Shown: piece by piece, positions 443 through 22,594 of the stretch | Numbering within the stretch: the first letter of the stretch is position 1 | Layout of the letters: every line of letters starts with the position of its first letter | Source: a virus | Direction: 5' to 3' (one strand) | DNA length: 59,633 nt | IMG/VR virus record: IMGVR_UViG_3300032323_001198 | Span: 1 to 59,633 of that record | The notes under the pieces: model-generated | Database searches by the model: none | The model's input: only the letters and a program-made list of their open reading frames with translations | What the model was told of the DNA's origin: nothing | Program-made: the position numbers and the translations under genes

Positions 443-453
443 TTCAATACTGA

Positions 454-527: not shown

Positions 528-533
528 ATCAAT

Positions 534-607: not shown

Positions 608-612
608 AACAT

Positions 613-688
613 GCCAACTTAGCAAATGTGGTCATTGCGGCCGCCTGAAGAGCGGTGGAACTTGGTTCGATCCCAAGAGTTGGCACCA
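613..688 (+). tRNA. tRNA-Phe(GAA)
   Basis: A perfect 7-bp acceptor (GCCAACT/AGTTGGC) is present. Anticodon stem GCCGC/GCGGT encloses loop CTGAAGA, the T stem is CTTGG/CCAAG, and CCA is encoded. Confidence 0.93.
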
Positions 689-693
689 TATAT

Positions 694-770
694 CGGTCCT
701 TAACTCAGTTGGATAGAGTGCCTGTCTTCGAAACAGGAAGTCGTGGGTTCGAATCCTGCAGGACCGGCCA
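694..770 (+). tRNA. tRNA-Arg(TCG)
   Basis: The acceptor CGGTCCT/AGGACCG is perfect. The anticodon stem CCTGT/ACAGG encloses loop CTTCGAA. CCA is encoded at 768-770. This is one of three Arg tRNAs in the array. Confidence 0.93.
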
Positions 771-785
771 TTTTAGGAGAATGTT

Positions 786-977
786 ATGAAATCAACCTTG
801 TTTAAAAATAAACTTAATAACGAGCGTTTTGTTTGTGACGATATCCGGCTGACTGAAAACATCGATGGCGTTGAATATATTATTGTACATAGACCCAACG
901 AGCATCGACATTTTAAAATGCGTAAAGATGTTTTAGAAAAAATCAAAGTAACCGATAGTAAAAATAAACCTCTATAA
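786..977 (+). CDS. small conserved-type phage protein, unknown function
   Basis: A 63-residue charged, soluble protein with no recognisable motif, signal peptide or membrane segment. The start is supported by AGGAGA at 774-779, seven bases upstream of the ATG. It sits directly after tRNA-Arg(TCG), and its stop codon overlaps the TATAAATA late-promoter motif that serves the next gene. It could be a small regulator or an inhibitor; nothing in the sequence decides. Confidence 0.75.
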   Translation: MKSTLFKNKLNNERFVCDDIRLTENIDGVEYIIVHRPNEHRHFKMRKDVLEKIKVTDSKNKPL

Positions 978-980
978 ATA
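973..980 (+). promoter_or_regulatory. T4-late-type promoter motif TATAAATA
   Basis: An exact TATAAATA lies 21 bases upstream of the oxygenase ATG at 1002, with GAGGG as ribosome-binding site in between. T4-type phages read such motifs with a phage late sigma factor. Assignment rests on the motif and position only. Confidence 0.6.
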
Positions 981-1001
981 TGTTACTTTGAGGGAATATA
1001 C

Positions 1002-2057
1002 ATGAAGATAAGCAAAATACCAGGTCTAGGACGTTTTGGTGTATATATCGACAATGTCGATTTAAACAACATTTCAGACGAAGAATGGATGGAGATTGGT
1101 AAGATACATTTAGAATCTCTAGTAACAATTATTAGAAACACAGATGTTACTCCTTATAATTATTATAGATTGATAATGAAATGGGGTCCAAGCAGATGGA
1201 ATCGTCCTATTGCTTTCTATAAGAAATATGGAAAGCCTTTAAAAGAATTAGTAATGAATAAAGAACTAGATGAAGAAGATCAACTAGTTTTCGATAATGG
1301 TCGCAGATGGCAATTTGATAAGCGTTGCCCAGGCATGGTCTGTGTAACACCTAAAAAGAATACCCGAGGACAAAGTATGGGTATTTTTGGAGATGGAGAA
1401 TTGCTGTGGCACAGCAACGAATGCGGCGATGTAGCGTTTACTCCCGGAGTAGCATTGTTAGGATATGAAAACGTAGATCAAACTGCTACAGGGTTTTGTA
1501 CCAGTCCAGATTGGTATGAAAAACAATCGGAAAGTTTTCGCAGTGAACTAGATGAAATGATCATTGTTCATAATTATCGTCCAATGGCTATGAGTCCAAT
1601 TGTTATCGAAGATCAAGAAAAGTTTTATAAAAACAATATGGCTCCTGAAAACGATATGAAGGTGCCGCTGATCATACAAAGCCCAGGTGGCATCAAAGGT
1701 GTACACTTAGGTATTAACACCTTTGATAAAATTGAAGGCATGAGTGTAGAAGATAGTAAAAAAATCTTTGACAAAATTCGTAGAGAAATGATAGTGCCAG
1801 AATACTGCTACGATCATTGGTACGGTGGCCGAGACATCTGTTTGTTCGATAACAGTATTACTTTGCACAATAGATCTATTCACGAAAGTATTGGAATCGC
1901 TCCTGAGAGACTAGGACTGCGCATTCAATATGATTTTGATAATCTTACTGGCAAATTTTACGAGCCTTTCTATCAAGAAGAATTCAATGATCTCAAGAAA
2001 GAAAGATTGAATATTCTAGATAAGGCTATGGAAGGTATGCTAATTAAGACTGACTGA
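1002..2057 (+). CDS. TauD/TfdA-like 2-oxoglutarate/Fe(II) dioxygenase
   Basis: A 351-residue protein of the TauD/TfdA type, whose members oxidise small molecules or amino-acid side chains with Fe(II), O2 and 2-oxoglutarate. Seen: LLWHSNE (H137) in the position of the first iron-ligand motif, and a C-terminal DNSITLHNR block (H289) followed by Arg-rich ERLGLR (R303/R307), matching the TauD DNRxxLHR region. The first motif reads H-S-N-E, not H-x-D, so the acidic ligand is uncertain. Start: ATG with GAGGG upstream, preceded by TATAAATA. It overlaps the next gene by one base, so the two are probably co-translated. The substrate is unknown. Confidence 0.75.
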   Translation: MKISKIPGLGRFGVYIDNVDLNNISDEEWMEIGKIHLESLVTIIRNTDVTPYNYYRLIMKWGPSRWNRPIAFYKKYGKPLKELVMNKELDEEDQLVFDNGRRWQFDKRCPGMVCVTPKKNTRGQSMGIFGDGELLWHSNECGDVAFTPGVALLGYENVDQTATGFCTSPDWYEKQSESFRSELDEMIIVHNYRPMAMSPIVIEDQEKFYKNNMAPENDMKVPLIIQSPGGIKGVHLGINTFDKIEGMSVEDSKKIFDKIRREMIVPEYCYDHWYGGRDICLFDNSITLHNRSIHESIGIAPERLGLRIQYDFDNLTGKFYEPFYQEEFNDLKKERLNILDKAMEGMLIKTD

Positions 2058-2683
2058 TGTCATATAAAGTTGTCGAATATTCACCCAAACTAGACCTTAC
2101 GGAATTCTATAAAGAGAATCAACGTCGAGGTCTAGAAAACAATACTAGTCAACAGGCTATGTTTGATTGCTTTCGCAACGAACCACACTGGAACGGTTGG
2201 CTAGTAGAGTATAACAACAGATTCATCGGCGGAGTTTGTATACACAGTTTCGATGATGTCATGGGTCCTAATAGTTACAGAATTTATGCTAGATCCTGCT
2301 TTCATACAGAACTTAGCATGAAGCCAACAGGTTATGTAAAAAGTCATTATACTAATCTACAAAATGTAGGATTACAATTATTCACTCCTGTTTCTATAGA
2401 ATGGGCAGGCATAGATAAAAAATTTTACGGCAGCAGTAATTCAAGAGATGTTGGTTCTGCACAAGTAGTAGATAAAGTTTGGTTTCCAAGATTAGCAGAA
2501 AGAGGAATCTTTACAAGAATTACCGAAGTATTTTACAGAGGTCATTATCAAAATATCTGGGAATTAAATGTTCAAGAGTATTTGAGACAGATAAAAACAG
2601 TACCGCATTGGGATTGCAAATTTCCTGGTGTGGATCTTAGAAAAGAAATGCCTCTGCCGATGGAGCGGTGCCAGGCCTTCTAA
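2057..2683 (+). CDS. GNAT-like phage protein; 3' end overlaps a tRNA gene
   Basis: A 208-residue soluble protein. The central part (about residues 45-75, with RFIGGVCIHSF then a beta-rich SYRIYAR segment) looks like the core of a GNAT acetyltransferase, but the acetyl-CoA loop is not clear, so the family call is weak. It starts on the ATG that overlaps the TGA of the upstream oxygenase. Its last 34 bases lie inside tRNA-Arg(TCT) at 2650-2721, so the final residues (after KEM) are encoded by tRNA sequence. This suggests that an original stop was lost, or that the tRNA recombined into the gene end. Confidence 0.6.
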   Translation: MSYKVVEYSPKLDLTEFYKENQRRGLENNTSQQAMFDCFRNEPHWNGWLVEYNNRFIGGVCIHSFDDVMGPNSYRIYARSCFHTELSMKPTGYVKSHYTNLQNVGLQLFTPVSIEWAGIDKKFYGSSNSRDVGSAQVVDKVWFPRLAERGIFTRITEVFYRGHYQNIWELNVQEYLRQIKTVPHWDCKFPGVDLRKEMPLPMERCQAF

Positions 2684-2721
2684 GCCAGGTTATGGAGGTT
2701 CGAATCCTTCCAGAGGCGCCA
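2650..2721 (+). tRNA. tRNA-Arg(TCT), overlapping upstream CDS
   Basis: The acceptor GCCTCTG/CAGAGGC is perfect, the anticodon loop is CTTCTAA, and CCA is encoded at 2719-2721. The first 34 bases are also the end of the preceding coding region. Confidence 0.88.
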
Positions 2722-2728
2722 AAAACCG

Positions 2729-2757
2729 TTGACAAGTAGACAAATAGATCATATAAT
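2729..2757 (+). promoter_or_regulatory. perfect-consensus sigma70 promoter for tRNA-Leu cluster
   Basis: TTGACA at 2729-2734 and TATAAT at 2752-2757 are separated by exactly 17 bases. Transcription would start near 2764, 20 bases before tRNA-Leu(TAG). Confidence 0.88.
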
Positions 2758-2783
2758 ATAGGCTGTTCAATAGAAATTCAATT

Positions 2784-2866
2784 GCCCTGGTGGTGAAATT
2801 GGTAGACACGCTGGTCTTAGAAGCCAGTGCGCAAGCGTGACGGTTCGAGTCCGTCCTGGGGCACCA
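2784..2866 (+). tRNA. tRNA-Leu(TAG)
   Basis: Class II tRNA with Leu-type D arm (GGTAGACAC), anticodon loop CTTAGAA, a long variable arm and an encoded CCA. Confidence 0.93.
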
Positions 2867-2871
2867 AATAC

Positions 2872-2956
2872 GCGAGTGTGGTGAAATAGGTAGACACAAG
2901 AGACTTAAAATCTCTCGGCTTCGGTCGTGCCGGTTCGATTCCGGCCACTCGCACCA
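2872..2956 (+). tRNA. tRNA-Leu(TAA)
   Basis: Acceptor GCGAGTG/CACTCGC is perfect. Anticodon stem AGAGA/TCTCT encloses loop CTTAAAA. A long variable arm and encoded CCA are present. Confidence 0.93.
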
Positions 2957-2963
2957 AGTTTAC

Positions 2964-3038
2964 GGATCGTTAGCACAGCGGTAGTGCGGCGCCCTTACAA
3001 GGCGTAGGTCGTAGGTTCGATCCCTACACGATCCACCA
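2964..3038 (+). tRNA. tRNA-Val(TAC)
   Basis: Acceptor GGATCGT/ACGATCC is perfect. Anticodon stem GCGCC/GGCGT encloses loop CTTACAA. CCA is encoded. Confidence 0.93.
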
Positions 3039-3045
3039 AATTAAT

Positions 3046-3137
3046 GCCTCTGTAGTTTAATGGTAAAACGGCGGATTTATATCCCGTAAGCAACAGATAA
3101 TTGGTTCATCTGGGTTCGAATCCCGGCGGAGGCACCA
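3046..3137 (+). tRNA. tRNA of uncertain identity, anticodon reads TAT (Ile?), long variable arm
   Basis: Acceptor GCCTCTG/CGGAGGC, D arm, T arm and CCA are clear. The anticodon loop best reads TTTATAT in stem GCGGA/CCCGT (one A-C mismatch), giving TAT. About 20 bases (AGAT...ATCT hairpin) sit in the variable region, a class II trait normally seen in Leu, Ser or Tyr tRNAs, not Ile. If the loop is shifted by one, ATA (Tyr) would be read. Confidence 0.65.
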
Positions 3138-3166
3138 TTGACATACGTTAGAAAAGACTGTATAAT
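3138..3166 (+). promoter_or_regulatory. perfect-consensus sigma70 promoter, leaderless output
   Basis: TTGACA 3138-3143, a 17-base spacer, TATAAT 3161-3166. The next ATG is at 3173, where transcription would be expected to begin, so the mRNA should be leaderless. Confidence 0.88.
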
Positions 3167-3172
3167 AACATT

Positions 3173-3325
3173 ATGAAATTATATGAAGCAACAATAAGAA
3201 CCAAAGACGGTAAAGAATTTAAAGATCGTGTGGGTGCCAATTCTGCTGAAGAAGCAAGAATGCTATTACAGCAAAGGCACGGCCCTAGGGCTGTTCCATA
3301 TGTTCCTCATATGATTCCAAGTTAA
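3173..3325 (+). CDS. 50-residue phage protein, probably leaderless
   Basis: An open frame of 50 codons from the ATG seven bases after a consensus -10 box to TAA at 3323-3325. The product is charged in its first two thirds and ends in a Pro/His-rich tail (AVPYVPHMIPS). No ribosome-binding site fits between promoter and ATG. It resembles other short phage proteins carrying KDGKEF and SAEEAR segments, but no function is recognised. It ends just before tRNA-Ser. Confidence 0.6.
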   Translation: MKLYEATIRTKDGKEFKDRVGANSAEEARMLLQQRHGPRAVPYVPHMIPS

Positions 3326-3326
3326 C

Positions 3327-3416
3327 GGAGAGTGGGCAGGATGGTAATGCAGCGGATTGCTAATCCGTAGATCGTAGTAATACGGTCAGTGGGTTCGACT
3401 CCCACACTCTCCACCA
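3327..3416 (+). tRNA. tRNA-Ser(GCT)
   Basis: Acceptor GGAGAGT/ACTCTCC is perfect. Anticodon stem GCGGA/TCCGT encloses loop TTGCTAA. A long variable arm and encoded CCA are present. Confidence 0.93.
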
Positions 3417-3435
3417 TTTTTACAAAAGGAAAAAA

Positions 3436-3606
3436 ATGAAATCAGGTCCAAACTATAAAATGACTAAACAGTCCAAAAGATTTTTAGCCACTATTGTCGA
3501 TCCTCATAAAAGAGCATTGTTCAAGGCAGGCACTATCCAAGCAGAACTAGCAGCCTTGGTACAGCCTAGAAGAGAAAAAAATCGCAAAGAAGCACCAGCA
3601 GAATAA
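3436..3606 (+). CDS. 56-residue basic phage protein, unknown function
   Basis: An ATG preceded by AAAAGGAAAAA opens 56 codons between tRNA-Ser and tRNA-Ala. The product is Lys/Arg-rich with a central FLATIVDPHKRALF segment and a basic C-terminus (PRREKNRKE). No membrane segment is seen. Small basic proteins inside phage tRNA clusters are common and usually uncharacterised; nucleic-acid contact is only a guess from its charge. Confidence 0.65.
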   Translation: MKSGPNYKMTKQSKRFLATIVDPHKRALFKAGTIQAELAALVQPRREKNRKEAPAE

Positions 3607-3616
3607 GTAATTTACT

Positions 3617-3690
3617 GGGGGATTAGTTAAATGGGATAACAACGGCTTTGCAAGCCGTGATTAACAGTTCGATTCTGTTATCCTCCACCA
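3617..3690 (+). tRNA. tRNA-Ala(TGC)
   Basis: Anticodon stem ACGGC/GCCGT encloses loop TTTGCAA. The acceptor pairs through 3617-3623 and CCA is encoded at 3688-3690. Confidence 0.92.
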
Positions 3691-3695
3691 GAATT

Positions 3696-3769
3696 GCCGC
3701 TTTAGTTAAATGGTATAACAGTTGCCTTGTAAGCATCAATCGTTGGTTCGATTCCATCAAGCGGCACCA
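3696..3769 (+). tRNA. tRNA-Thr(TGT)
   Basis: Acceptor GCCGCTT/AAGCGGC is perfect. The anticodon loop is CTTGTAA. CCA is encoded at 3767-3769. Confidence 0.9.
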
Positions 3770-3785
3770 AGATAACCAAAATGTC

Positions 3786-3813
3786 TTGACAAAGACAAAA
3801 AAGAGTGTATAAT
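3786..3813 (+). promoter_or_regulatory. consensus sigma70 promoter, 16-base spacer
   Basis: TTGACA 3786-3791 and TATAAT 3808-3813. It would start a transcript with a roughly 290-base structured leader before the coding region at 4110. Confidence 0.85.
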
Positions 3814-3820
3814 AAGTTTT

Positions 3821-4109
3821 GTTGTGTAGCAATACACAACCGGCGAGGTAGAAGGTAGATGAGGATAGACACAAGGCTTAGGCTACATGCCTAATCCAAA
3901 CTACATCTGGCAAAGACTCTTGAAAAGTCTACGTGCTTGAGTGATCCGATTTTATCTAATACCCTGTCATTTGCTGATCGGAAATATTCAGGCCTCTGTC
4001 GCCTGTTTATTGAAAGTTGTCAAAGGGTGGACTTGTGAAACCCTGCCTGTCAATTGTCCGGTCTATTACTTGACCTTTTACCAAACCGTTTTTATAAAGA
4101 GAGACACAA
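3821..4109 (+). ncRNA. structured 5' leader or RNA of unknown class
   Basis: Right at the expected transcript start stands a perfect 8-bp hairpin with a GCAA tetraloop (3821-3840). Further hairpins follow: TTAGGC/GCCTAA, GACT/AGTC, CCGAT/ATCGG, CAGGC/GCCTG and AGGGT/ACCCT. Only weak, unlikely reading frames cross it. It may be a regulatory leader of the 190-residue protein or the 5' part of a larger RNA continuing after that gene. No known riboswitch was recognised. Confidence 0.45.
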
Positions 4110-4682
4110 ATGAATATCACACTACGCAAGGCAAACGCAGTTCAAAACAGCATCAATGATGCAGTTAAAAGCATCAAAGTTGAGTTGAATGTAGAACTTA
4201 ACGAGTTTCAAAATATTGAAGAAATCATCAGTAAAGCCAACAATGACCTTGTAAACAATGATGGTCGTAGACAGGCTCTTACTATGGCTCTATACAATAT
4301 TCGAGCCCTCGTAGGTACAGCCAATACCTCTAGCGGTATTGACACAGCATTGGCCAAGGCAGCGTTTATCGATAAGCGTATCAGCCAACTAGAAGAACTA
4401 GCCAAGGCTACAGAGATTACTTCTTTAGAAGTGATCAAAGGTAAACTTGAGAAAATTAAAAATCTCAAAGACGAAGCCCGTAGCCGCATGTTTGGTTACG
4501 GTGACACTGTAACAACATCTGTTCTTGGTAAAGAACAAATCGCTCAGGCCAAGGCAGAAATCCTTAACCTGAAAAAGCAAAAACAAAAACTCAATGACGA
4601 AATTCTTGAGTTGAATATCAAAACTGAGATTCCTCTCAGTGATGATGTAGTCAAGACACTACAAGCAGAAGGACTGCTTTAA
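4110..4682 (+). CDS. coiled-coil phage protein, unknown function
   Basis: A 190-residue, highly helical, charged protein. The C-terminal third (about residues 145-172) is a strong heptad-like Leu/Ile/Lys stretch. No catalytic motif, signal peptide or membrane segment is visible. The ATG is preceded by AAAGAGAGACAC, a plausible ribosome-binding site. It is flanked on both sides by about 300 bases of apparently structured RNA, and the arrangement (promoter, RNA, ORF, RNA, tRNA-fMet) raises the chance that protein and RNA form one unit. It could be an RNA-binding or scaffolding protein; this is inference. Confidence 0.7.
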   Translation: MNITLRKANAVQNSINDAVKSIKVELNVELNEFQNIEEIISKANNDLVNNDGRRQALTMALYNIRALVGTANTSSGIDTALAKAAFIDKRISQLEELAKATEITSLEVIKGKLEKIKNLKDEARSRMFGYGDTVTTSVLGKEQIAQAKAEILNLKKQKQKLNDEILELNIKTEIPLSDDVVKTLQAEGLL

Positions 4683-5000
4683 TAACCCCTGTTACACTTT
4701 TCAGGAAGAAAGTGCGCCATTACCAAGCGATAGAAGGTGCGGTGCTTAGGATCTACCGCAAGGCTCTGTTGGGAGCGACTTGAGAAATCCTAGGTACGAA
4801 CTGTAACGGCTCCAAAAGCAGAATACAGCGGACAGGGTAACAACTCAGTCTAGGGCGGAACGGGAACCGTGGCTAGACACTTTTAAAGAGTAGATTGACA
4901 AGATTTTAACACTCCGGCAAGAGTAACATTATCAAGTCGATTTGCCGATCGAGGGGTCCCATAATCGCCCTTCAGTCTACTCCTTAAAGTTAAGAACAGA
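4683..5000 (+). ncRNA. structured RNA region between coiled-coil gene and tRNA-fMet
   Basis: No gene is visible in these 318 bases, but inverted repeats are dense. The best is a 16-position stem, 4883-4898 with 4972-4987 (15 of 16 paired), enclosing 73 bases with an inner ACTC-CGGCAA-GAGT hairpin. Upstream are a GTCTAG/CTAGAC stem (about 4851-4879) and a CTTAGGAT/ATCCTAGG stem (about 4745-4795). The family is not recognised. Confidence 0.45.
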
Positions 5001-5076
5001 CGCAGAGTGTTAGAAGTGGTATCTGGCAAGGCTCATAACCTTGAGGTCGGTGGTTCGAATCCACCCTCTGCAACCA
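5001..5076 (+). tRNA. initiator-type tRNA-fMet(CAT)
   Basis: Positions 1 and 72 are C and A (unpaired) while pairs 2-7 are perfect, the hallmark of bacterial initiator tRNA. The anticodon loop CTCATAA is identical to that of typical fMet tRNAs, and the stem ends in G-C pairs. CCA is encoded at 5074-5076. Confidence 0.87.
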
Positions 5077-5079
5077 AGT

Positions 5080-5318
5080 TATTGATAGTAGTATAAGGTC
5101 CGAGCAACGATCGAAAGACGATTCTAAGCGGGTGGAACTGCAAAGTTGGTGCATCGTAGGTGCATTGTTGGCTGTAATATGATCAACGGCCTTTTACAGG
5201 GTAAAGGGATTGAACAGTAACGGATTCCATGTTAGGCTGGACTATAGAAGCAGGCGCTGTAATGCCTGGGCGGCCAAGGGTATCGTCCCAAACCAAAACT
5301 TCAGTATTACTATCAATA
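5080..5318 (+). ncRNA. large structured inter-tRNA RNA element
   Basis: The ends of the spacer between tRNA-fMet and tRNA-Arg(CCT) pair over 14 consecutive positions (5080-5093 with 5305-5318, one G-U). The enclosed 210 bases contain a CAGGC/GCCTG hairpin near 5252-5269 and repeated GGTGCAT units near 5149-5166, but no convincing ORF. Size and placement resemble the element at 225-442. It is probably a stable RNA or a processing substrate; the function is unknown. Confidence 0.5.
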
Positions 5319-5324
5319 TTCAAA

Positions 5325-5399
5325 CTCGCTGTAGTTCAATGGATAGAACGGCTCTCTCCTAAAGAGTAGATCCAGGTTCGATTCCTGGTAGCGAGACCA
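5325..5399 (+). tRNA. tRNA-Arg(CCT)
   Basis: Acceptor CTCGCTG/TAGCGAG pairs fully (one G-U). Anticodon stem GCTCT/AGAGT encloses loop CTCCTAA. CCA is encoded. Confidence 0.92.
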
Positions 5400-5420
5400 G
5401 AAGTTAAATAAAAGAATAAT

Positions 5421-5494
5421 GCGGGGTTCGTATAGTGGTAATACCTCAGCCTTCCAAGCTGATGCGGAGAGTTCGATTCTCTTACCCCGCTCCA
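5421..5494 (+). tRNA. tRNA-Gly(TCC)
   Basis: Acceptor GCGGGGT/ACCCCGC is perfect. Anticodon stem TCAGC/GCTGA encloses loop CTTCCAA. CCA is encoded. The next coding region begins only four bases later. Confidence 0.92.
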
Positions 5495-10358: not shown

Positions 10359-11063
10359 ATGAACACTGAGTTTGAATACTACTATAATAATGTTCCTGAC
10401 AAGGGACTTTGCAGAAATAATTTGATTTATACTAGCCTAATCAGCCACGATAAAAAAACATTTTGTCAATGGTATTACAATGATCAAGGATATCATGGCG
10501 GGAAAAATCAAGTGGTAGATCCTAGTCTAATGGAATCAAAATGGCTACGTGAAGTGAAATTTATTAAACTTATAAGTGAACACTATCCAGAACACGTACC
10601 TGAAATTCTAGACATAGATTATATTAACAGAAAAATCTTTCTAAAAATCGACGGTCCCGATATGTGGGAATTAGCAGGTTGCCAAGGTAACGACTATATC
10701 AGCGTTCTTCCTAATTGGGAAGAACAGATGCTAGACATTATTAAAAGTTATCAATCATTAGGCATTTATAAAATGTCTATGCATCCTAGCAGTTATTTTA
10801 TCATTGACGGAAAAATGAAAGGTATAAATTATTTTTTCTGTTATACTGACGAGGATGAAGAAATATCTATGAGTAGTCTAATGAGTCATATCAGTAAAGA
10901 TAGACAAAAAACTCTACAACCTATATTTGACTCTTTGAAAATTAATCCCGATGAGCCAACTGCTTTTTGGAAAATACAGATGCTGACCTTTGAAACGTTT
11001 AAAACAAACTTCTTAGACAGTACTATGGAAAAGGCTAAACTGATTTATCAACGGCCTGTTTAA
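10359..11063 (+). CDS. kinase-like (aminoglycoside-phosphotransferase-type) phage protein
   Basis: A 234-residue protein related in layout to the product at 13142-13822. Shared are a central strand pair VPEILDIDYINRKIFLKIDG, then a helix, then KMSMHPSSYFIIDGKMKGINYFF. The last segment resembles the catalytic loop and the following metal-binding strand of small kinases (H-x-S..., then D/N). A clear ATP Lys loop is not seen, so activity is uncertain. It lies alone between opposing oxygenase and SDR genes. Its end overlaps the SDR gene by 29 bases. Confidence 0.5.
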   Translation: MNTEFEYYYNNVPDKGLCRNNLIYTSLISHDKKTFCQWYYNDQGYHGGKNQVVDPSLMESKWLREVKFIKLISEHYPEHVPEILDIDYINRKIFLKIDGPDMWELAGCQGNDYISVLPNWEEQMLDIIKSYQSLGIYKMSMHPSSYFIIDGKMKGINYFFCYTDEDEEISMSSLMSHISKDRQKTLQPIFDSLKINPDEPTAFWKIQMLTFETFKTNFLDSTMEKAKLIYQRPV

Positions 11064-11664
11064 TTCTTTCAACTAATTGATCCAACTGCGGTTTAGTTTT
11101 CATTTTAGTTGATATTTGATCATAGAGCAAATCTGTAATCTTAAAATTAAATCTTACATTATTGAAACTGGGATTTCGTATCCAAAAATTCACAGTGTCA
11201 ACTACTTCATCAAAAGATATAGTATAGTCACATTTAAGATTATTGGGATCGTCTATGTCTACAATATTGCCTTCTAGACAGGAAAGATCAAGATGCAGTA
11301 TTTTTGTTTTACTATTCTTATCTAGAGAAATTAAATGACAGACTTCTGCTAGATCTTTTTTATTTTTTCCGTAATCTGTAGGTATTAGATCATTAAAGAA
11401 TCCGCCTTGAGATCCTGATACTACTAACATCTTTACTCGATTATTTAGATGCTTGACTAATTCTATTTGTCTTCGATCTGCATAGGCATTGCTAATAAAC
11501 AAATCACAATTTTCTGCTGCGGCAATCACAGAGTCGATAGATGTTTTAATATCCGTTCCTTGACTTCTACTAAAACCTATTACTGTATTATTGGGATCTT
11601 TGACAAAATGATCATATAATGTTTTGCCTAAGCCTCTAGTATGACCTGTTATAACTATTTTCAT
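11035..11664 (-). CDS. short-chain dehydrogenase/reductase-like protein
   Basis: A 209-residue protein with the NAD(P)-binding TGHTRGLGK near the N-terminus, an NAYA segment (the NAG position) and the catalytic YGKNK (Y-x3-K). It is shorter than classic SDRs (about 250) but complete in motifs. I take the ATG at 11664 over a TTG one codon upstream; it overlaps the stop of the upstream 56-residue gene (TGATG). A second, smaller SDR lies at 12672-13145. A plausible role is redox of a sugar or small-molecule intermediate made in the island; this is inference. Confidence 0.75.
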   Translation of the reverse strand: MKIVITGHTRGLGKTLYDHFVKDPNNTVIGFSRSQGTDIKTSIDSVIAAAENCDLFISNAYADRRQIELVKHLNNRVKMLVVSGSQGGFFNDLIPTDYGKNKKDLAEVCHLISLDKNSKTKILHLDLSCLEGNIVDIDDPNNLKCDYTISFDEVVDTVNFWIRNPSFNNVRFNFKITDLLYDQISTKMKTKPQLDQLVERIKQAVDKSV

Positions 11665-11834
11665 CAAACTAAATTCTTTTTTACAAACTCTAAAAATCCG
11701 TTAGGCATTTTTTCATCTACAATTTTTTTGACTTCTTCAATTTCATAAAGATCCTTTAGAATCTTATACATAGCAGCATTGGCCTGCTGTAACTCCATGA
11801 ACTTGTTTAAGAAGAACTCGTCTTTGTTATCCAT
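11664..11834 (-). CDS. 56-residue helical protein, unknown function
   Basis: A short ORF between the cold-shock/hydroxylase gene (one base gap) and the SDR gene (overlapping stop/start). The ATG has GAGG ten bases upstream. The product is acidic and helical with Met/Leu/Lys heptad character and no Cys, Ser or Thr-rich core. It is the only short ORF inside the modification island, so it is worth considering as a partner or substrate peptide, but nothing marks it as a RiPP precursor. Confidence 0.65.
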   Translation of the reverse strand: MDNKDEFFLNKFMELQQANAAMYKILKDLYEIEEVKKIVDEKMPNGFLEFVKKNLV

Positions 11835-11835
11835 A

Positions 11836-12675
11836 TCAATATCCTCTGCTATCGTCTCTTTTCAAATTACTTAGACAGAAAATGATAGCAAATTTTTCGC
11901 CTTCGGTTATTTCTTTGCTTTCGTGTATCAATGACCAGTCTAAATCTAAATCTTCAGTGTGATGCCAAACAGACATTCTACCTTTTTTAGGTTTGATAGA
12001 AACATCTATGTGTGGAAAGTATGTTTCACCGCCAACAAAATCATCATTAAGATAAACCAGTGCTACTGCATCTCTAGTTCCTGCTTTTTGATAATAATCT
12101 AATTTTCTTGGATCATATGGCCAATCATGATGCGGAGTCATGTAATGACCTGTTTGATAGTATAATATGTCTGCTGACTCTATAAGATAGTAAGGTCTGC
12201 CTAACGCATCTGATGCGGCAGTTGAAATAGTATCATAATCTTGATAGGTAAAATCGTTAAGTATCCTTCGGTGGATATTTCGATCGTTGGCTTGACCATA
12301 TGTATCTCTAGAACAATCTGATCTATGGTCTCCCATGGTAATATACTTTCCAGGGTAATCTACGCTAAGACTACGTTTGATTAGATCATCGCAATATTCA
12401 TCGGGTAGAACATTATCATAGATACTGACTCTTGGATAGTCATGAAGAACAACTTCTTTGAACTTAGACGACTTTTCTTTAATTTGATCGTAACTAAAAT
12501 TAATTACATTAAGATCAAAGATTGAATTATCAATAACTTTAAATTCTACACGTTGACCTTCTAACAAACAACCTTGTCTGTAATTATACACCGGAATTTC
12601 CACACCATTATCGGAAGAGATGAGGCCATAAGATTTTGAGTTGTTAAACCATTTAACTGTTCCAGTTTCCATCAT
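11836..12675 (-). CDS. cold-shock domain fused to prolyl-4-hydroxylase-type oxygenase
   Basis: A 279-residue fusion. Residues 2-60 form a cold-shock domain: TGTVKWFN opening, KSYGLIS as a degenerate RNP1, and a closing GQRVEFKV strand. Residues 85-272 form a P4H-type 2OG oxygenase: TPHHDW with H182-x-D184, VGGETYFP, then IHES with H251 and 2OG-binding K261 (GEKFAIIF). Cold-shock domains bind single-stranded RNA or DNA; P4H domains hydroxylate prolines, including in translation proteins. The fusion suggests a nucleic-acid-tethered hydroxylase. It sits in a five-gene minus-strand operon with kinase-like and SDR genes. The activity is inferred, not shown. Confidence 0.82.
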   Translation of the reverse strand: MMETGTVKWFNNSKSYGLISSDNGVEIPVYNYRQGCLLEGQRVEFKVIDNSIFDLNVINFSYDQIKEKSSKFKEVVLHDYPRVSIYDNVLPDEYCDDLIKRSLSVDYPGKYITMGDHRSDCSRDTYGQANDRNIHRRILNDFTYQDYDTISTAASDALGRPYYLIESADILYYQTGHYMTPHHDWPYDPRKLDYYQKAGTRDAVALVYLNDDFVGGETYFPHIDVSIKPKKGRMSVWHHTEDLDLDWSLIHESKEITEGEKFAIIFCLSNLKRDDSRGY

Positions 12676-13145
12676 TTAGTCCTATATGAAAATGCTATAA
12701 TGTCAGTATTTAGTAACCAAAATTTAATAGAATCGTAGATCAGCCTACTGTCTTTATATACTTTACCTGTGAGATTTATGATCAGCAAATCGCTGACTTT
12801 TTTCTCCAGTGCCTGTTTTGTAAAATAGTCATCTAGTTCTTTTTTGTTCTGACTATATTCTACCATAGTAGAATCTGGATATCTTGCAGCCACAGATCCC
12901 ATCACTACTATTTTATTGTTAGTATTGATTAAATTTTCTAAAATCTTTTTTTGAACACCGTTGGCATAGGCATTTAAAATCACTAGACTGTTTTCTTCTA
13001 TCTGTGAAATTATTGTTGCGTAATCTTTTTCTATGTCGTAACCGTTGGTTCTATCAAACCCAGAAACATCGTATCCGTCTTTGACAAAGTAATCGGCAAT
13101 ATGTTTTCCAAGACCTCTGGATTTACCTATGACATAAACTTTCAT
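12672..13145 (-). CDS. short SDR-like protein
   Basis: A 157-residue relative of the SDR at 11035-11664: GKSRGLGKH nucleotide loop, NAYANG, and YSQNK in the catalytic Y-x3-K position. It is about 50 residues shorter, lacking much of the C-terminal substrate region, so it may be a reduced paralogue or have another role. It overlaps the downstream cold-shock fusion gene (ATGATG start inside its end) and begins inside the end of the kinase-like gene, so the operon is translationally coupled. Confidence 0.7.
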   Translation of the reverse strand: MKVYVIGKSRGLGKHIADYFVKDGYDVSGFDRTNGYDIEKDYATIISQIEENSLVILNAYANGVQKKILENLINTNNKIVVMGSVAARYPDSTMVEYSQNKKELDDYFTKQALEKKVSDLLIINLTGKVYKDSRLIYDSIKFWLLNTDIIAFSYRTK

Positions 13146-13822
13146 TTGTTAAAAATTAAATCGTGTATAAATTTTAAATCTTTATTGCCCCACAATACAT
13201 GTTCTTGTAATCCTCTTTTAAACATGATTTCTAGATTGTAATAGTCCCCGACTAACGGTCCGGTTTCGTCCAATCTAAATTTTGCTGATTCGTGTATAAT
13301 AGCGTCCATATATTTTCTATGGATAAGAGGATGTTCTATAGGAACACAACCATACCAATCTATGGCTTTTAACTGACCTTGATCAGTGACATAATGACAA
13401 TGGCTGTACATGGTTAATTTATAATAGCCTTCTTTGATCTGATCTAACATTACATCTTTTAATTGTTCGAGCCAATCTAGCGGCCAGTTACTGTCAGTAT
13501 AAACAGTATGATTACAACTGTTTCCATACCACTTTATGAAAATTTGTTTGTTGGCGTGATCAATATCTAAAACTTCAGGAGCATAATCTTTGCCGGCAAA
13601 ATGCTGTAAGTTTTTTATATCGTTATTAAAAAACCAATTTATAACTTCTTGATCATAGAGAGGTCGTTCGCCCATGGATTGGTGATACGAAGTATGCAAA
13701 TTATAATTTGCACAGAATACAGTGCCTTCAGGATTTATCAAAGGTTCATAGGTAGTTTGTGCCATACCCAGTTTACCCACTTCACTGAATTTATAGTAGT
13801 GATTCCAATTAGAGATATTCAT
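13142..13822 (-). CDS. kinase-like phage protein
   Basis: A 226-residue protein, paralogous in layout to 10359-11063: YAPEVLDIDHANKQIFIKWYG, then a helix, then KLTMYSHCHYVTDQGQLKAIDWYG. The latter looks like a catalytic loop and the metal-binding Asp of small-molecule kinases, but the ATP-binding Lys is unclear. It is first in its minus-strand operon; TTAAATAT lies six bases upstream of the ATG, so its mRNA is probably leaderless. Confidence 0.5.
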   Translation of the reverse strand: MNISNWNHYYKFSEVGKLGMAQTTYEPLINPEGTVFCANYNLHTSYHQSMGERPLYDQEVINWFFNNDIKNLQHFAGKDYAPEVLDIDHANKQIFIKWYGNSCNHTVYTDSNWPLDWLEQLKDVMLDQIKEGYYKLTMYSHCHYVTDQGQLKAIDWYGCVPIEHPLIHRKYMDAIIHESAKFRLDETGPLVGDYYNLEIMFKRGLQEHVLWGNKDLKFIHDLIFNK

Positions 13823-13861: not shown

Positions 13862-14827
13862 ATGTCTACTCAATTTCAACCCTCTACACTATGTTGGTAC
13901 GACGATAACGGTATCAATTTACCAATGATTTCTGATCATGCTAGGAATCAATTCTATCAACGTATACTATCCAAATCAGTAAAGAATAAAACATGTATCG
14001 ATGTTGGGTTCGGGACTGGTTTATTATCTCTAATGGCTTTAGAACAAGGTGCTGAAAAGATAATTGCTTTTGAAACAAACGCCGAACGATATCATCTAGG
14101 TTTAGATATTATTGAAAAGTTAAAACTTAAAAATCTAATTGACCTAAGAAATGAACGATATTGTTCAACATATTTCAAAGATCAAACTTGTGTGATAATA
14201 CAAGAAATTGTCGGACACAATTTATGGAATGAGGGTCTAAGATTTATTATAGATAAAGATCAAGTTTTAGTTCCTGGAGACTTTTACTGCGAATACTATT
14301 GTTGTCCTATTGATGAAAATATCTATCAACAGTTTATAAACCATCATACAGACTCAAGTAAAATAAATCTAGGAATTAATTTAAACAATTTTAATTTTTT
14401 AAAATTAATTTATGAATATCAAATAAAAGAGCAAAATGTAATAAATTTAAATGACGAAAAAATTATCAAAGACATTTACAAAGATCTATTATCTAAAGGC
14501 AGTTTAATCGGAAAGTATTGCGTACTTACTAATCAGAAAAAATTGTTGATCAACGAAGCGACAGTAGAATATAATTTAGACTGTGATCAGATAGGATATA
14601 TTGATGTTCCTTTAACTATAAATTTGAAATTTGATTGTTCAATAATATTAGCCAAATATTTTATAGGACACAATGAAGATCTGCTAGTTATATCTCCCAG
14701 TGAAGATAATCCAACTTCTCACTGGGCAGTGCCTACTCCTGTTTGCGTAATATCTGATTTAGAAAACAGTTTTATAGCCAGAACTTATCTAGATGACGGT
14801 TCTGTAAGAGTGTATCCTAAGAAATGA
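13862..14827 (+). CDS. PRMT-like class I methyltransferase
   Basis: A 321-residue SAM-dependent methyltransferase. Motif I is IDVGFGTG (46-53) with acidic E71 at the end of strand 2. The segment IIQEIVGHNLWNEG carries E115 and E124, nine residues apart, exactly the spacing of the PRMT double-E loop that grips the substrate arginine. The C-terminal half is beta-rich as in the PRMT barrel, with late HWAVPTPVC. It could methylate arginine or a guanidino product, which would connect to the two amidinotransferases. The 3' end overlaps the opposite oxygenase gene by 43 bases. Confidence 0.75.
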   Translation: MSTQFQPSTLCWYDDNGINLPMISDHARNQFYQRILSKSVKNKTCIDVGFGTGLLSLMALEQGAEKIIAFETNAERYHLGLDIIEKLKLKNLIDLRNERYCSTYFKDQTCVIIQEIVGHNLWNEGLRFIIDKDQVLVPGDFYCEYYCCPIDENIYQQFINHHTDSSKINLGINLNNFNFLKLIYEYQIKEQNVINLNDEKIIKDIYKDLLSKGSLIGKYCVLTNQKKLLINEATVEYNLDCDQIGYIDVPLTINLKFDCSIILAKYFIGHNEDLLVISPSEDNPTSHWAVPTPVCVISDLENSFIARTYLDDGSVRVYPKK

Positions 14828-15423
14828 AAAATGTAATTTGGCCTGTTGCTATTATTGATCAACGAATGTAGTTCTTTAGTAGTAGGCCACTTTACTACTG
14901 TGTGCTTAGATATATTTTCATATTTGTTATCACCGACTATAAAAATTTGATCTTGTACAGGATCATCTATGAATACCATGTATCTGACTAGATTTTTCTT
15001 TTCTAATTCAATCCAAGTTTTTTCTTGATCAAATTCGTCTTTATGAAAAGGTATAGTTGAGTATGCATCAACTCTGCTAATCCAACATTCCTGAACTGAG
15101 TGTCCAACAAGACTTTCAAACTTATCTACTATAGATTTTGAAAAATGATTCTCAGAATTATATTGCTCAAGATTTGGATAAAAATTTTGAAAGGTTATTT
15201 TTGTAAAATCAAGTCTCTGATCAAAATAATTCTTAACCATTTCAACAAACGGTGTTCTACTAAATTCAAATGGTAGAAGACCTTTGTCGATAATTTCTTG
15301 ATAAGTTTGTAACTCTGTTTTTTCTGTATCAATAGTTTGGTCTACATGACGTACTGAACCTGTCTTTGAGTCTAGGCTCTGAATAATGTCATCCCAATTT
15401 ATAATACCATCTGTGGTTATCAT
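14785..15423 (-). CDS. 2OG/Fe(II) oxygenase-like protein (NWDD family)
   Basis: A 212-residue member of a three-copy family in this island (also 25006-25551 and 25548-26117), recognised by an N-terminal INWDDIIQSL and a core WISRVDAYSTIPFHKD with H127-x-D129. The distal His lies in the C-terminal third (HSLINN) but is less clear than in the paralogues. I prefer the ATG at 15423, because a minus-strand TATAAATA lies between it and an upstream in-frame ATG at 15444. Leaderless expression is expected. The substrate is unknown. Confidence 0.65.
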   Translation of the reverse strand: MITTDGIINWDDIIQSLDSKTGSVRHVDQTIDTEKTELQTYQEIIDKGLLPFEFSRTPFVEMVKNYFDQRLDFTKITFQNFYPNLEQYNSENHFSKSIVDKFESLVGHSVQECWISRVDAYSTIPFHKDEFDQEKTWIELEKKNLVRYMVFIDDPVQDQIFIVGDNKYENISKHTVVKWPTTKELHSLINNSNRPNYIFHFLGYTLTEPSSR

Positions 15424-15427
15424 AAAG

Positions 15428-15435
15428 TATTTATA
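15428..15435 (-). promoter_or_regulatory. late-type promoter TATAAATA, 4 nt before ATG
   Basis: Exact motif on the minus strand; decides the start of the oxygenase at 15423. Confidence 0.65.
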
Positions 15436-15451
15436 GTGGTACATTATAGCC

Positions 15452-19336: not shown

Positions 19337-20611
19337 ATGTCTATTAATAATTCAAAAACTTTCTGCATGCATCCGTTTACCGGTCTTGCAACTAGAGAAG
19401 ACGGTGCGATCAAGATCTGCTGTCGAAGCCTTCCTATAGGTTGGATACAAGAAAACAGTTTAGAACAAGTCTGGAATAATGATAAAATGCAGCAGGTTCG
19501 CAAACAAGTTTTATGTGGTGAAAGACCAGATGTTTGTAAACCTTGTTTTGACTTAGAGGATCAAGGAGTTGAAAGTCTACGCCAACGACACGTCAATGGT
19601 GTTATTCCCGAAGCAAGAATAAATCTATACCCTAACGCCTTAGATCAACTCCGAGAAGATTATACTATGCCTTTTGAATTTCCTACTATGGAAATTAAAA
19701 TCAATAATCTCTGTAACCTAAAATGCAGAATGTGCAATCCTTTAGATAGCACAAGTTGGCAGGATTGGGATCAAGTGAAACCATTCTATGAAAAAGAAAA
19801 CAACTACTTGGTTCCTACCATAGCAAAATTAGTTCGAAAGCCTGGTCAATACATAGGACCGTTTGAAGACACAAATCACTGGTGGGAAAATTTTGAAAAA
19901 CTACTTCCTCATTTTCGCAGAGTAGAATTTGCCGGTGGCGAACCTTTAATGGATCCTTATCATTATCGTATTTTAGATATGTTAAAACCTTACGGAAAAA
20001 ACATAGAAATAAAATATGCTACCAATGGCACTGTGTTAGGAATTAAAGGCGGTAGGACCATTCATGATTATTGGCCTTATTTTAAATCTGTAGCAGTCAA
20101 TGTTAGTATAGACGGCATACATGATGTTTACAATTACATTCGTACTAATAGTAATTTTGCCGATGTAGAAAAGAATATAAAAGAAATACAAACTATTCCC
20201 AATGTAAGCAGAGTGGTCGGTGCGTTTACTGCTCAGGCTGCCAATATATTACAAATTTCTGAGTGTATTGATTATTTTTTAAATCAAATGAACATTGTTT
20301 TTTACAGTCACAGAGTTAGTTATCCTAATTGTTTATCAGCACAGGTTCTGCCTCAAGAGTTAAAACAGTTGGCTATAGAAAGATTACGGAATGTTGAAAG
20401 CAGATTATGGACATTTGATAAAATTAATCAAAGTAACCTACTTGAAAAAGTTACTCGACAGCAGATCAAAGATAATATAAATTATCTACAAGCCAAAGAT
20501 CAACATCATTTGTGGAATGATTTTCTAGAATTCAATAGAAAACTAGATGAAACTAGAAATCAAAAACTATTAGATGTGATCCCAGAATTCAAAGAATATG
20601 TTAACAATTAA
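19337..20611 (+). CDS. radical SAM enzyme with N-terminal SPASM/twitch-like Cys module
   Basis: A 424-residue enzyme. The radical SAM [4Fe-4S] motif is C126-x3-C130-x2-C133 (CNLKCRMC), with EFAGGEP further on. Before the core, residues 1-75 carry CMHPF, CC28-29 and C67-x2-C70 with a conserved G and W pattern, as in SPASM/twitch modules that bind auxiliary Fe-S clusters, here placed N-terminally. Such enzymes often modify peptides. It is the first of three plus-strand radical SAM genes in a row. It shares architecture with 23579-25000. Confidence 0.85.
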   Translation: MSINNSKTFCMHPFTGLATREDGAIKICCRSLPIGWIQENSLEQVWNNDKMQQVRKQVLCGERPDVCKPCFDLEDQGVESLRQRHVNGVIPEARINLYPNALDQLREDYTMPFEFPTMEIKINNLCNLKCRMCNPLDSTSWQDWDQVKPFYEKENNYLVPTIAKLVRKPGQYIGPFEDTNHWWENFEKLLPHFRRVEFAGGEPLMDPYHYRILDMLKPYGKNIEIKYATNGTVLGIKGGRTIHDYWPYFKSVAVNVSIDGIHDVYNYIRTNSNFADVEKNIKEIQTIPNVSRVVGAFTAQAANILQISECIDYFLNQMNIVFYSHRVSYPNCLSAQVLPQELKQLAIERLRNVESRLWTFDKINQSNLLEKVTRQQIKDNINYLQAKDQHHLWNDFLEFNRKLDETRNQKLLDVIPEFKEYVNN

Positions 20612-20613
20612 AA

Positions 20614-21510
20614 ATGTTTAAAGTTACTAGTGTATGGCCTCATCAAGATCAATTAAAAGTTGAATGGAATCTCGGTAAACGATGTAATTACGATTGCAGT
20701 TATTGTCCTGTCAGTGTGCATGATAACTTTAGTCCGCACACCGACATTAACATTTTAGAAAAAACTGTAGATCGTTTGTGTGAATTAGATAAACCTTTGC
20801 GTATTAGCCTAACTGGCGGTGAGCCTTGCGTACACCCGGACATAGAAAGTTTATTAGAATACTTTAAAAGAAAAAATATCTACTGGGTCAATATAACAAC
20901 TAACGGCACACGGGGATATCAATGGTATCTACAGCACGAAATGTTTTTTAATCATTTAGTTTTTAGTTTACATTTTGAGTTTGATTATACTCGAATAGTA
21001 GATACTATATTAAAATATTATGATAGCACACAACAAGATTTCTTTGTTAATGTTATGGCACACCACGAATATATGCCTCAGGTAAAAACCGTGGTTAAAA
21101 AATTCAAAGAGATTGGAATAAAATTTGCTATTAGAAGAATAAGGTGGACTGAAGGAGATCATAATGTCTTTGACGATCTAAGATATAACGGTGATGATCT
21201 TCAGTGGATTATAGACAACGATGCCACGGCTAAACCTAATTGCAGGATTGACAATGAGCAAATTATACACGCTAATGATGTAATAAAAAAACATATGAAT
21301 CAATTTAAAGGTTGGACATGTAATGCTGGATTAGAAAGCCTTATGATCAATTGGGATGGTGAAGTTCATCGTGCTACTTGCCGTGTTGGTGGCAGTCTAG
21401 GTAACATATACCAGGGTACGTTTACTGAGCAATTACAACCTATAAGTTGTACTAGAGATTGGTGTACCTGTGCAGCAGATATTCCTTTAACAAAGATTAA
21501 AAATGATTAA
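20614..21510 (+). CDS. radical SAM enzyme
   Basis: A 298-residue enzyme with C24-x3-C28-x2-C31 (CNYDCSYC), SLTGGEPCVHPD, and a C-terminal Cys set (WTCNAG, ATCR, SCTRDWCTC) likely to bind an auxiliary cluster. It begins two bases after the preceding gene and overlaps the next by eight bases. Closest relatives within the window are 21503-22594, 22587-23582 and 34364-35347, which all share the CNYxCxYC core. Substrate unknown. Confidence 0.85.
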   Translation: MFKVTSVWPHQDQLKVEWNLGKRCNYDCSYCPVSVHDNFSPHTDINILEKTVDRLCELDKPLRISLTGGEPCVHPDIESLLEYFKRKNIYWVNITTNGTRGYQWYLQHEMFFNHLVFSLHFEFDYTRIVDTILKYYDSTQQDFFVNVMAHHEYMPQVKTVVKKFKEIGIKFAIRRIRWTEGDHNVFDDLRYNGDDLQWIIDNDATAKPNCRIDNEQIIHANDVIKKHMNQFKGWTCNAGLESLMINWDGEVHRATCRVGGSLGNIYQGTFTEQLQPISCTRDWCTCAADIPLTKIKND

Positions 21511-22594
21511 AGTGGATGCTGTTAGACTTGTAAAACCAGAGCCTATGATGATCACTTGGGATGTTGGTCGCAGATGTAATTACGACTGTAGTTACTGTGA
21601 AATTTATCGACATGATAATATTAGTAAGTTTCACAGCATTGAAGAATATTTAAAAACATTTAAATTTATAAAGCAGTGGACTAACACGTATAATGATAAC
21701 AGAAAAGAAAAAGTATCTACAAATATAAATTTCACAGGCGGTGAACCTACACTTAACCCTGCTCTTTGGGAATTGGCTGACGTAATTAAAACAGACTCAG
21801 ACGAGTTTAATCTAAGTTTAACCACTAATGGTGCATGGAATAGAAAATATACAGACAAACTGTTAAAAAGATTCAACGGGGTTACGGTCAGTTATCACAC
21901 AGAAGGGCATTCTAATTTAAAAAAACAAGTAATAGAAAACATATTAGAATTATCAAAGACTAATATGCGTTTACAGGTAAATCTAATGATGCATGTAGAT
22001 CACTGGAATGAATGTTTAGAAGTTTTTGATATGTTAAAATCTAACAACGTGCTAGTAAAACCTAGGCCAATCGGTGACGGTAATATAGAACGCACTGGAT
22101 GGTTCATAGATTCAGATGGATCAAATAGAAGAACTAGTCATCAATATACTGCTGATCAACAACTGTGGTTTTCAACTGTAGCAGGTCACAATATTTCTGT
22201 ATGCGAAAACAAAACAGAAGGCACAGGGCTAGGAAGGGGGTGCTGCGGTGGTCGTTGTATGGAAGGCAAGATAAACAATCAATGGCAGGAAATTAAAATT
22301 ATTGATACTAATTTTAAAAACTGGAACTGTATGGTCGATTGGTTTTTCCTGCACATAGATCAACACACTGGTTTAGTTTACCATCATCAAACCTGTCAGG
22401 CTCTTCACGAAAATAAAAGAGGATCTTTAGGTAATCTTATAGATTCAGATATTTTAATAAAAGATCTAGAACAAAGAATGCTCAATAAAACAGCAATTGT
22501 CTGTCCCAATAATAGATGCGGCTGCGGAATGTGTATCCCAAAGTCTAAAGACAGCGTTGTTTTTAAAGAACTTTGGGACAGTGTAGTTAACTAA
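21503..22594 (+). CDS. radical SAM enzyme with Cys-rich C-terminus
   Basis: A 363-residue enzyme: C25-x3-C29-x2-C32 (CNYDCSYC), NFTGGEPTLNP, and a C-terminal region unusually rich in Cys (GRGCCGGRC, NWNCM, HQTCQA, VCPNNRCGCGMC), pointing to at least one auxiliary Fe-S cluster. It is the third gene of the plus-strand radical SAM operon. Its end overlaps the opposite radical SAM gene by eight bases, so plus- and minus-strand operons meet tail to tail. Confidence 0.85.
   Translation: MIKVDAVRLVKPEPMMITWDVGRRCNYDCSYCEIYRHDNISKFHSIEEYLKTFKFIKQWTNTYNDNRKEKVSTNINFTGGEPTLNPALWELADVIKTDSDEFNLSLTTNGAWNRKYTDKLLKRFNGVTVSYHTEGHSNLKKQVIENILELSKTNMRLQVNLMMHVDHWNECLEVFDMLKSNNVLVKPRPIGDGNIERTGWFIDSDGSNRRTSHQYTADQQLWFSTVAGHNISVCENKTEGTGLGRGCCGGRCMEGKINNQWQEIKIIDTNFKNWNCMVDWFFLHIDQHTGLVYHHQTCQALHENKRGSLGNLIDSDILIKDLEQRMLNKTAIVCPNNRCGCGMCIPKSKDSVVFKELWDSVVN

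What the first reader, a model, noticed from the sequence alone, without database searches (positions are those of the whole stretch)
11836..12675. Cold-shock domain fused to a prolyl-4-hydroxylase-type oxygenase
Seen: TGTVKWFN cold-shock opening in residues 2-60, followed by a P4H core with H182-x-D184, H251 and K261. Established: cold-shock domains bind single-stranded nucleic acid, and P4H enzymes such as those acting on ribosomal protein uS12 tune translation. Inference: a hydroxylase delivered to RNA or ribosomes during infection. The RNP1 motif is degenerate, so binding may be altered.
Basis: partly seen in the sequence, partly recalled or inferred. Interest (0 to 1): 0.85.

Follow-up and report, generated by a model that had tools for sequence, protein, structure and literature searches.

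The report
Phage cold-shock/prolyl-hydroxylase fusion enzyme
Uncultivated aquatic phages, at least some of them of the jumbo T4 type, carry a conserved enzyme that joins a remodelled cold-shock (RNA-binding-type) domain to a prolyl-hydroxylase-type oxygenase, nearly always inside the same small gene cluster; no cultured phage searched has it and no paper searched describes it.

Summary
The fusion is real. It is a 279-aa gene on the MINUS strand (11836-12675): a cold-shock domain (CSD, residues 1-59) plus a prolyl-hydroxylase-fold 2OG/Fe oxygenase (68-275). Both pass Pfam cut-offs and fold confidently; H182, D184, H251, K261 are as stated. It is no one-off: 31 distinct fusion proteins on about 45 viral contigs, both halves under purifying selection, none in 50,697 phage records. 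(2) It travels in a conserved cluster: a 230-aa protein of unknown family, two HxD...H proteins and a 60-aa protein that is fused to the hydroxylase in three contigs. (3) Every CSD keeps RNP1 but has lost RNP2, and the tyrosine shared by prolyl-4-hydroxylases is Leu/Met/Ile in all 35 members, as in ribosomal prolyl-3-hydroxylases. So 'P4H' holds for the fold, not the chemistry. Best reading: a protein hydroxylase of a phage modification island with the CSD as docking module. Substrate unknown; ribosome targeting possible, unproven.

The parts
11836..12675 (-). CSD-prolyl-hydroxylase fusion gene, 279 aa; start codon overlaps the stop of the upstream gene by 4 bases
12496..12675 (-). Cold-shock domain, residues 1-60, five-strand OB barrel
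   Evidence: Pfam PF00313 7.5e-8; CspA Z 9.9, rmsd 1.5; model strands 2-11, 16-21, 26-30, 42-48, 51-59
12619..12636 (-). RNP1-like KSYGLI (residues 14-19), largely retained
   Evidence: K7, W8, N10, K13 positions near-invariant in the family
12583..12600 (-). RNP2 position EIPVYN (residues 26-31), lost: no counterpart of CspB Phe27, His29, Phe30
11851..12474 (-). Prolyl-hydroxylase-fold 2OG/Fe(II) oxygenase domain, residues 68-275
   Evidence: Pfam PF13640; Z 22.4 to algal P4H 3gze, 21.1 to B. anthracis P4H 5hv0
12124..12132 (-). H182-H183-D184, proximal Fe ligands
   Evidence: HHD in 35 of 35 members
12139..12141 (-). M179, position of the P4H-conserved tyrosine; Leu/Met/Ile throughout this family
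   Evidence: PMC4396695
12073..12075 (-). R201, position of the arginine shared by P4Hs and P3Hs at the active-site opening
   Evidence: invariant in A6; PMC4396695
11923..11925 (-). H251, distal Fe ligand
11893..11895 (-). K261, 2OG-binding lysine at H+10
   Evidence: K in 35 of 35
11664..11834 (-). 56-aa small protein; its homologue is fused to the C-terminus of the fusion enzyme in L331, L333, L334
12672..13145 (-). Short-chain dehydrogenase-like, 157 aa, YxxxK present
   Evidence: adh_short 3.7e-7; synteny
11035..11667 (-). Second SDR-like protein, 210 aa, weak family match
   Evidence: E 0.031, below cut-off; synteny
13142..13822 (-). Conserved 226-aa cluster protein (nickname 'kin' in my scripts), no Pfam, PDB or cultured-phage match
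14785..15444 (-). HxD...H protein of the cluster type, 219 aa; oxygenase assignment by motif only

Best explanation
The gene encodes a two-domain 2-oxoglutarate/Fe(II)/O2-dependent hydroxylase of the prolyl-hydroxylase fold. The C-terminal barrel is probably catalytically competent and probably hydroxylates a residue (most likely proline) in a protein or peptide; shown: fold and complete Fe/2OG residue set; inferred: substrate and regiochemistry. The N-terminal CSD is a remodelled OB barrel acting as a docking module that brings the enzyme to its substrate or partner complex; shown: OB fold, retained RNP1 face, lost RNP2 face, occurrence on a peroxidase as well; inferred: docking. It works as part of a conserved phage cluster (a 230-aa protein, two HxD...H proteins, a 60-aa partner, in some lineages two SDRs) inside a large phage island of radical-SAM-like, oxygenase-like and transferase-like genes. 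The cluster most likely modifies a phage or host protein or peptide during infection.
For: Both domains. Fe/2OG residues invariant in 35 members. 31 distinct fusions, purifying selection on both halves. In a scan seeded by the oxygenase alone, all 10 family members found have the CSD fused or on the GPx gene directly upstream; more distant relatives do not. Cluster synteny in practically every contig long enough to show it. The 60-aa protein is fused to the enzyme in three contigs, which suggests physical partnership. The CSD is on GPx in at least two separate branches.
Against: No substrate is known. The cluster partners have no family match, so a protein-modification pathway is inferred from company, not shown. 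A retained RNP1 face in all members argues that some nucleic-acid contact may remain, which favours the RNA/ribosome rival. The P4H tyrosine is missing, so proline itself is not certain as the target.
Confidence: 0.42

Rival explanations
1. Ribosome- or translation-directed hydroxylase: the CSD binds RNA or the ribosome and the oxygenase hydroxylates a translation protein of the host such as uS12 or EF-Tu.
For: Leu/Met/Ile in place of the P4H tyrosine, as in the uS12 prolyl-3-hydroxylases OGFOD1/Tpa1; close fold match to the B. anthracis entry titled as modifying EF-Tu (5v7y, Z 20.7) and to the Pseudomonas putida P4H-EF-Tu complex (4iw3, Z 16.7); RNP1 residues kept.
Against: Counterparts of His29, Phe30 and the Phe38 loop are lost in all fusions and Phe27 in most; no translation genes seen in the conserved cluster; same CSD on a peroxidase; 2OG is held by Lys rather than the OGFOD1 Arg.
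Confidence: 0.25
2. The nucleic acid itself is the substrate: the CSD holds single-stranded RNA or DNA and the oxygenase oxidises a base or sugar.
For: CSD fold and retained RNP1; phages often modify nucleotides (own knowledge).
Against: The oxygenase groups with peptidyl-prolyl hydroxylases by sequence and fold, and the arginine that holds the substrate backbone carbonyl is kept.
Confidence: 0.1
3. It hydroxylates a collagen-like phage tail fibre, as classical collagen P4Hs do.
For: The window carries a collagen-like fibre with long G-X-Y repeats at 58938-59630.
Against: Collagen repeats in only 2 of 31 records with the module, absent even from the 364-kb and 282-kb records (records may be fragments); the repeats have proline mainly in the X position.
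Confidence: 0.06
4. The CSD is an evolutionary passenger or expression element (for example autoregulation through its own mRNA) with no role in the enzyme's reaction.
For: The CSD stays on the 5' side of the hydroxylase whether or not GPx lies between them.
Against: Fusion kept across very diverged lineages under purifying selection; gene order in the cluster varies, so the CSD gene is not always first.
Confidence: 0.15

Closest known systems
Bacterial P4H of Bacillus anthracis (3itq, 5hv0, 5v7y)
   Same: Best sequence match in the PDB (phmmer 1.2e-11, family profile 2.5e-26) and fold Z about 21; Fe/2OG residues aligned
   Different: No CSD; has Tyr three residues before the Fe ligand where this family has Leu/Met/Ile
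uS12 prolyl-3-hydroxylases OGFOD1/Tpa1
   Same: Leu at the position of the P4H tyrosine; conserved Arg; accessory non-catalytic domain
   Different: Eukaryotic, tandem barrels, 2OG held by an RXS arginine; lower fold score (Z 15.1)
Chlamydomonas P4H-1 with (Ser-Pro)5 (3gze)
   Same: Top fold match, Z 22.4 over 192 residues
   Different: No CSD; Tyr140 present
CspA/CspB cold-shock proteins
   Same: OB fold (rmsd 1.5 A to CspA); W8, N10, K13 kept and aromatic 15 in all but one
   Different: RNP2 and the Phe38 loop lost; fused to an enzyme
Phage 2OG oxygenases without CSD (Erwinia phages Y3 and Yoloswag, Salmonella phage Sen-NF, cyanophage PiuC-like)
   Same: Related oxygenase domain, 25-37% identity
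   Different: Unfused, and those inspected lie in other gene contexts

Membership tests
Prolyl hydroxylase superfamily (PH fold) | HxD...H iron triad plus basic residue binding 2OG | tested here: met
   HHD and K at H+10 in 35 of 35
Prolyl hydroxylase superfamily (PH fold) | Double-stranded beta-helix fold close to known PHs | tested here: met
   pLDDT 88.8, pTM 0.87; Z 22.4 to 3gze, 21.1 to 5hv0
Prolyl hydroxylase superfamily (PH fold) | Conserved Arg at the active-site opening (Arg161 CrP4H) | tested here: met
   R201 aligned and invariant; criterion from PMC4396695
Prolyl hydroxylase superfamily (PH fold) | Hydroxylates prolyl residues with 2OG | not testable with these tools
   Needs enzyme assay
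Prolyl-4-hydroxylase (regiochemical class) | Conserved Tyr (Tyr140 CrP4H, Tyr310 PHD2) | tested here: not met
   Position H-3 is L 31, M 3, I 1, never Y; five of nine unfused phage relatives checked have Y, the other four F
Prolyl-3-hydroxylase (OGFOD1 type) | Leu at that position | tested here: inconclusive
   Leu in 31 of 35, Met in the window protein; the paper says this residue alone does not set regiochemistry
Cold-shock domain | Five-strand OB barrel with RNP1 | tested here: met
Cold-shock domain | RNP2 nucleic-acid-contact residues (CspB F27, H29, F30) | tested here: not met
   H29 in 0 of 29 fusions against 57 of 58 standalone Csps; F30 0 of 29; F27 3 of 29; F38 column empty in 29 of 29
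Cold-shock domain | Binds single-stranded nucleic acid | not testable with these tools
   Needs binding assay

The most novel reading that the evidence does not exclude
A phage-made, oxygen-dependent protein hydroxylase steered to ribosomes or RNA by a remodelled cold-shock domain: a multi-domain prolyl hydroxylase outside eukaryotes that rewrites host translation during infection, with a domain that phages swap between a hydroxylase and a peroxidase.
Probability: 0.2. Interest if true: 0.88.

Novelty: new variant of a known kind. Interest (0 to 1): 0.62.

Why it matters
[quoted passage not shown] Here is a conserved, selected two-domain form in phages, in a conserved cluster of which two companion families tested have no match in cultured phages, Pfam or PDB. 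It gives a defined handle (the substrate of one enzyme, the partner role of one 60-aa protein) on large oxygenase/radical-SAM-rich islands of uncultivated T4-superfamily phages, and a natural experiment in domain swapping (CSD on a hydroxylase versus CSD on a peroxidase).

Tried and rejected
Collagen-fibre substrate: tested by a Pfam Collagen search over 31 records carrying the module; only 2 positive, so dropped as a general explanation. Split-gene or assembly artefact: rejected by about 45 contigs and dN/dS. CSD as a chance match: rejected. Defence-system membership: PADLOC gave only generic 2OG and CSD models. Identity of the 230-aa 'kin' protein and of the HxD...H proteins: nothing convincing in Pfam, PHROGs, PDB profiles or phages; hhalign did not link the HxD...H proteins to the hydroxylase. 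My script labels 'kin' and 'Asp' are nicknames, not assignments. The genome-collection scan found only standalone Csps, but its patterns came from the CSD, so bacterial oxygenase-only relatives were not sampled. Papers: no report of a CSD-hydroxylase fusion; the library is open-access only. The first structure model (7 sequences) was poor, pLDDT 57, and was replaced by one from 71 sequences; but the CSD rows of the fold comparison come from that first model, whose CSD blocks scored 63-81. The fold comparison of the better model was filled by the oxygenase, so it did not test the CSD. In the viral structure library the listed best matches are oxygenases of about the size of that domain, none with TM-score above 0.56 to the full query.

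Full report
Observation. The ORF 11836-12675 is on the minus strand, 279 aa, start codon at 12675, overlapping the preceding SDR-like gene by four bases. Pfam finds CSD at 4-50 (7.5e-8) and 2OG-FeII_Oxy_3 at 170-265 (2.3e-9), both above curated cut-offs.

How widespread. One protein query in IMG/VR found full-length fusions at 96% and 72% identity. Alignment queries found a deep family at 32-45% identity over most of the length. In all, 31 distinct fusion proteins (30 from loci plus the window's; two of them cut by contig ends) on about 45 contigs were collected. No record among 50,697 phage genomes holds the fusion over 80% of its length; a search with the CSD alone found 20 records, of which the annotated ones read cold-shock or hypothetical protein (I did not check each for fusion). 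The tool may leave out records very near the window. A scan of bacterial and archaeal genomes found only CSD matches, but its patterns came from the CSD.

Is the CSD really tied to this oxygenase? Ten contigs encoded family members at 62% identity or more to the query oxygenase; eight have the CSD fused and two have a CSD on the gene directly upstream, while the next relatives (about 35% or less) have none. Four of the ten contigs had not been seen before.

The swap. In L117-L123, L125 and L127-L131 the oxygenase stands alone and the CSD is the N-terminus of a glutathione peroxidase-family gene upstream of it (in L127 GSHPx 1.4e-33 and CSD 6.8e-11). In L125 and L127-L131 the two genes overlap by a few bases; in the L117 group about 900 bases lie between them. 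About 18 contigs carry CSD-GPx. On a maximum-likelihood tree of the oxygenase the GPx state needs three changes, at least two forced by well-supported branches (many inner forks are weak). Insertion of GPx at the domain boundary, or recombination with such a locus, is the simplest reading (inference).

The cluster. In practically every contig long enough to tell, the enzyme sits with the same genes: a roughly 230-aa protein, two proteins of about 160-220 aa with an HxD...H motif, and a 56-82-aa protein; one subgroup also has two SDR-like proteins. In L331, L333 and L334 the small protein is fused to the C-terminus of the enzyme (343-348 aa). In the window the order is 226-aa protein (13142-13822), SDR (12672-13145), fusion enzyme, 56-aa protein (11664-11834), second SDR (11035-11667), all on the minus strand. 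The 230-aa and HxD...H families match nothing convincing in Pfam, PHROGs, cultured phages or PDB. By reading of the ORFs (not tested by models) the surrounding tens of kilobases are rich in radical-SAM-like, amidinotransferase-like, methyltransferase-like and further oxygenase-like proteins.

Oxygenase domain. A model from 71 aligned sequences has pLDDT 88.8 and pTM 0.87. Residues 68-275 match algal P4H with (Ser-Pro)5 (Z 22.4, 2.7 A, 192 residues), B. anthracis P4H (Z 21.1), the B. anthracis entry titled as modifying EF-Tu (Z 20.7), the P. putida P4H-EF-Tu complex (Z 16.7) and OGFOD1 (Z 15.1). The Fe/2OG set is invariant in 35 members (30 fused including the window's, 5 GPx-associated). PMC4396695 gives two substrate residues: an Arg shared by P4Hs and P3Hs, and a Tyr shared by all P4Hs but Leu in P3Hs. 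The Arg is present (R201). The Tyr position, three residues before the first Fe ligand and aligned without gaps to BaP4H and CrP4H, is Leu in 31, Met in 3 (the window's group), Ile in 1, never Tyr. Unfused phage relatives have Tyr or Phe there. So the family should not be filed as P4H by chemistry; [quoted passage not shown]

Cold-shock domain. Residues 1-58 superpose on CspA at 1.5 A (Z 9.9; first model). Against 58 standalone Csps, the 29 alignable fusions keep W8, N10, K13 (29 of 29), an aromatic at 15 (28) and Phe at 17 (23), but have no His29 (0, against 57 of 58 Csps), no Phe30 (0), Phe27 in 3 only, and no residue at Phe38. CSD-GPx proteins show the same pattern, consistent with one ancestral remodelled CSD. 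Nucleic-acid binding is therefore likely weakened or changed; a protein-docking role is plausible. The PDB hits include an endolysin in complex with CspC (8xyf), a reminder that CSDs can bind proteins.

Selection. dN/dS in pairs: CSD 0.02-0.20, oxygenase 0.03-0.05. Several synonymous distances are saturated, so these are rough, but neither half is decaying.

Phage and host. A T4-type major capsid protein is present in the records of 364, 282 and 113 kb; the one tested (113-kb record) is 67-72% identical to those of Sinorhizobium phage Phosso, Vibrio phage 2.275.O and Serratia phage BF, all of roughly 350-470 kb. The window's ThyX is nearest to Limnohabitans and Methylophilales phages. The window itself is a 59.6-kb record, probably a fragment, so its own phage type is inferred.

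Verdict. Domain identity is near certain (my estimate above 0.95). Function is inferred: most likely a docking-module-guided protein hydroxylase in a phage modification island (0.42), with translation targeting the main rival (0.25).

Noticed in passing
window about 58532-59633 (+, open at the window end): Tail-fibre-like protein with long collagen-like G-X-Y repeats; tested as a possible hydroxylase substrate but not linked to the module in general.
   Followed up: yes
L117:8378-9112, L127:9276-10004, L131:9258-9983, L125:2402-3112: Cold-shock domain fused to glutathione peroxidase, upstream of a free-standing hydroxylase of the same family; no such fusion over 80% of its length in the cultured-phage records.
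   Followed up: partly
window 13142-13822 (-) and 10359-11063 (+): Two members (23% identical) of a conserved roughly 230-aa family without Pfam, PHROG or PDB match (the first also none in cultured phages); conserved motif YKLTMYPHCHYI...AIDWYG hints at a phosphotransferase-like fold (unverified).
   Followed up: partly
window 25006-26117 (-), 14785-15444 (-): HxD...H proteins conserved in the cluster, oxygenase-like by motif only, not recognised by Pfam.
   Followed up: partly
window 19337-25000, 28513-30411, 32687-35347: Many radical-SAM-like proteins with amidinotransferase-like and methyltransferase-like genes nearby; looks like a large biosynthetic or modification island in a phage. Nearest cultured relatives of one are in 250-kb Vibrio phages at 21-26% identity.
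   Followed up: no
window 44401-45258, 46108-47169, 47479-48806: By reading only: KdsA-like, UV-damage-endonuclease-like, superoxide dismutase-like, IscU- and IscA-like genes; unusual phage cargo, not tested.
   Followed up: no
window 147-5494: Sixteen tRNA genes in the first 5.5 kb.
   Followed up: no
L230:4938-5912: A 324-aa viral-contig protein with a standard CSD near its N-terminus and a different, unidentified C-terminal part.
   Followed up: no
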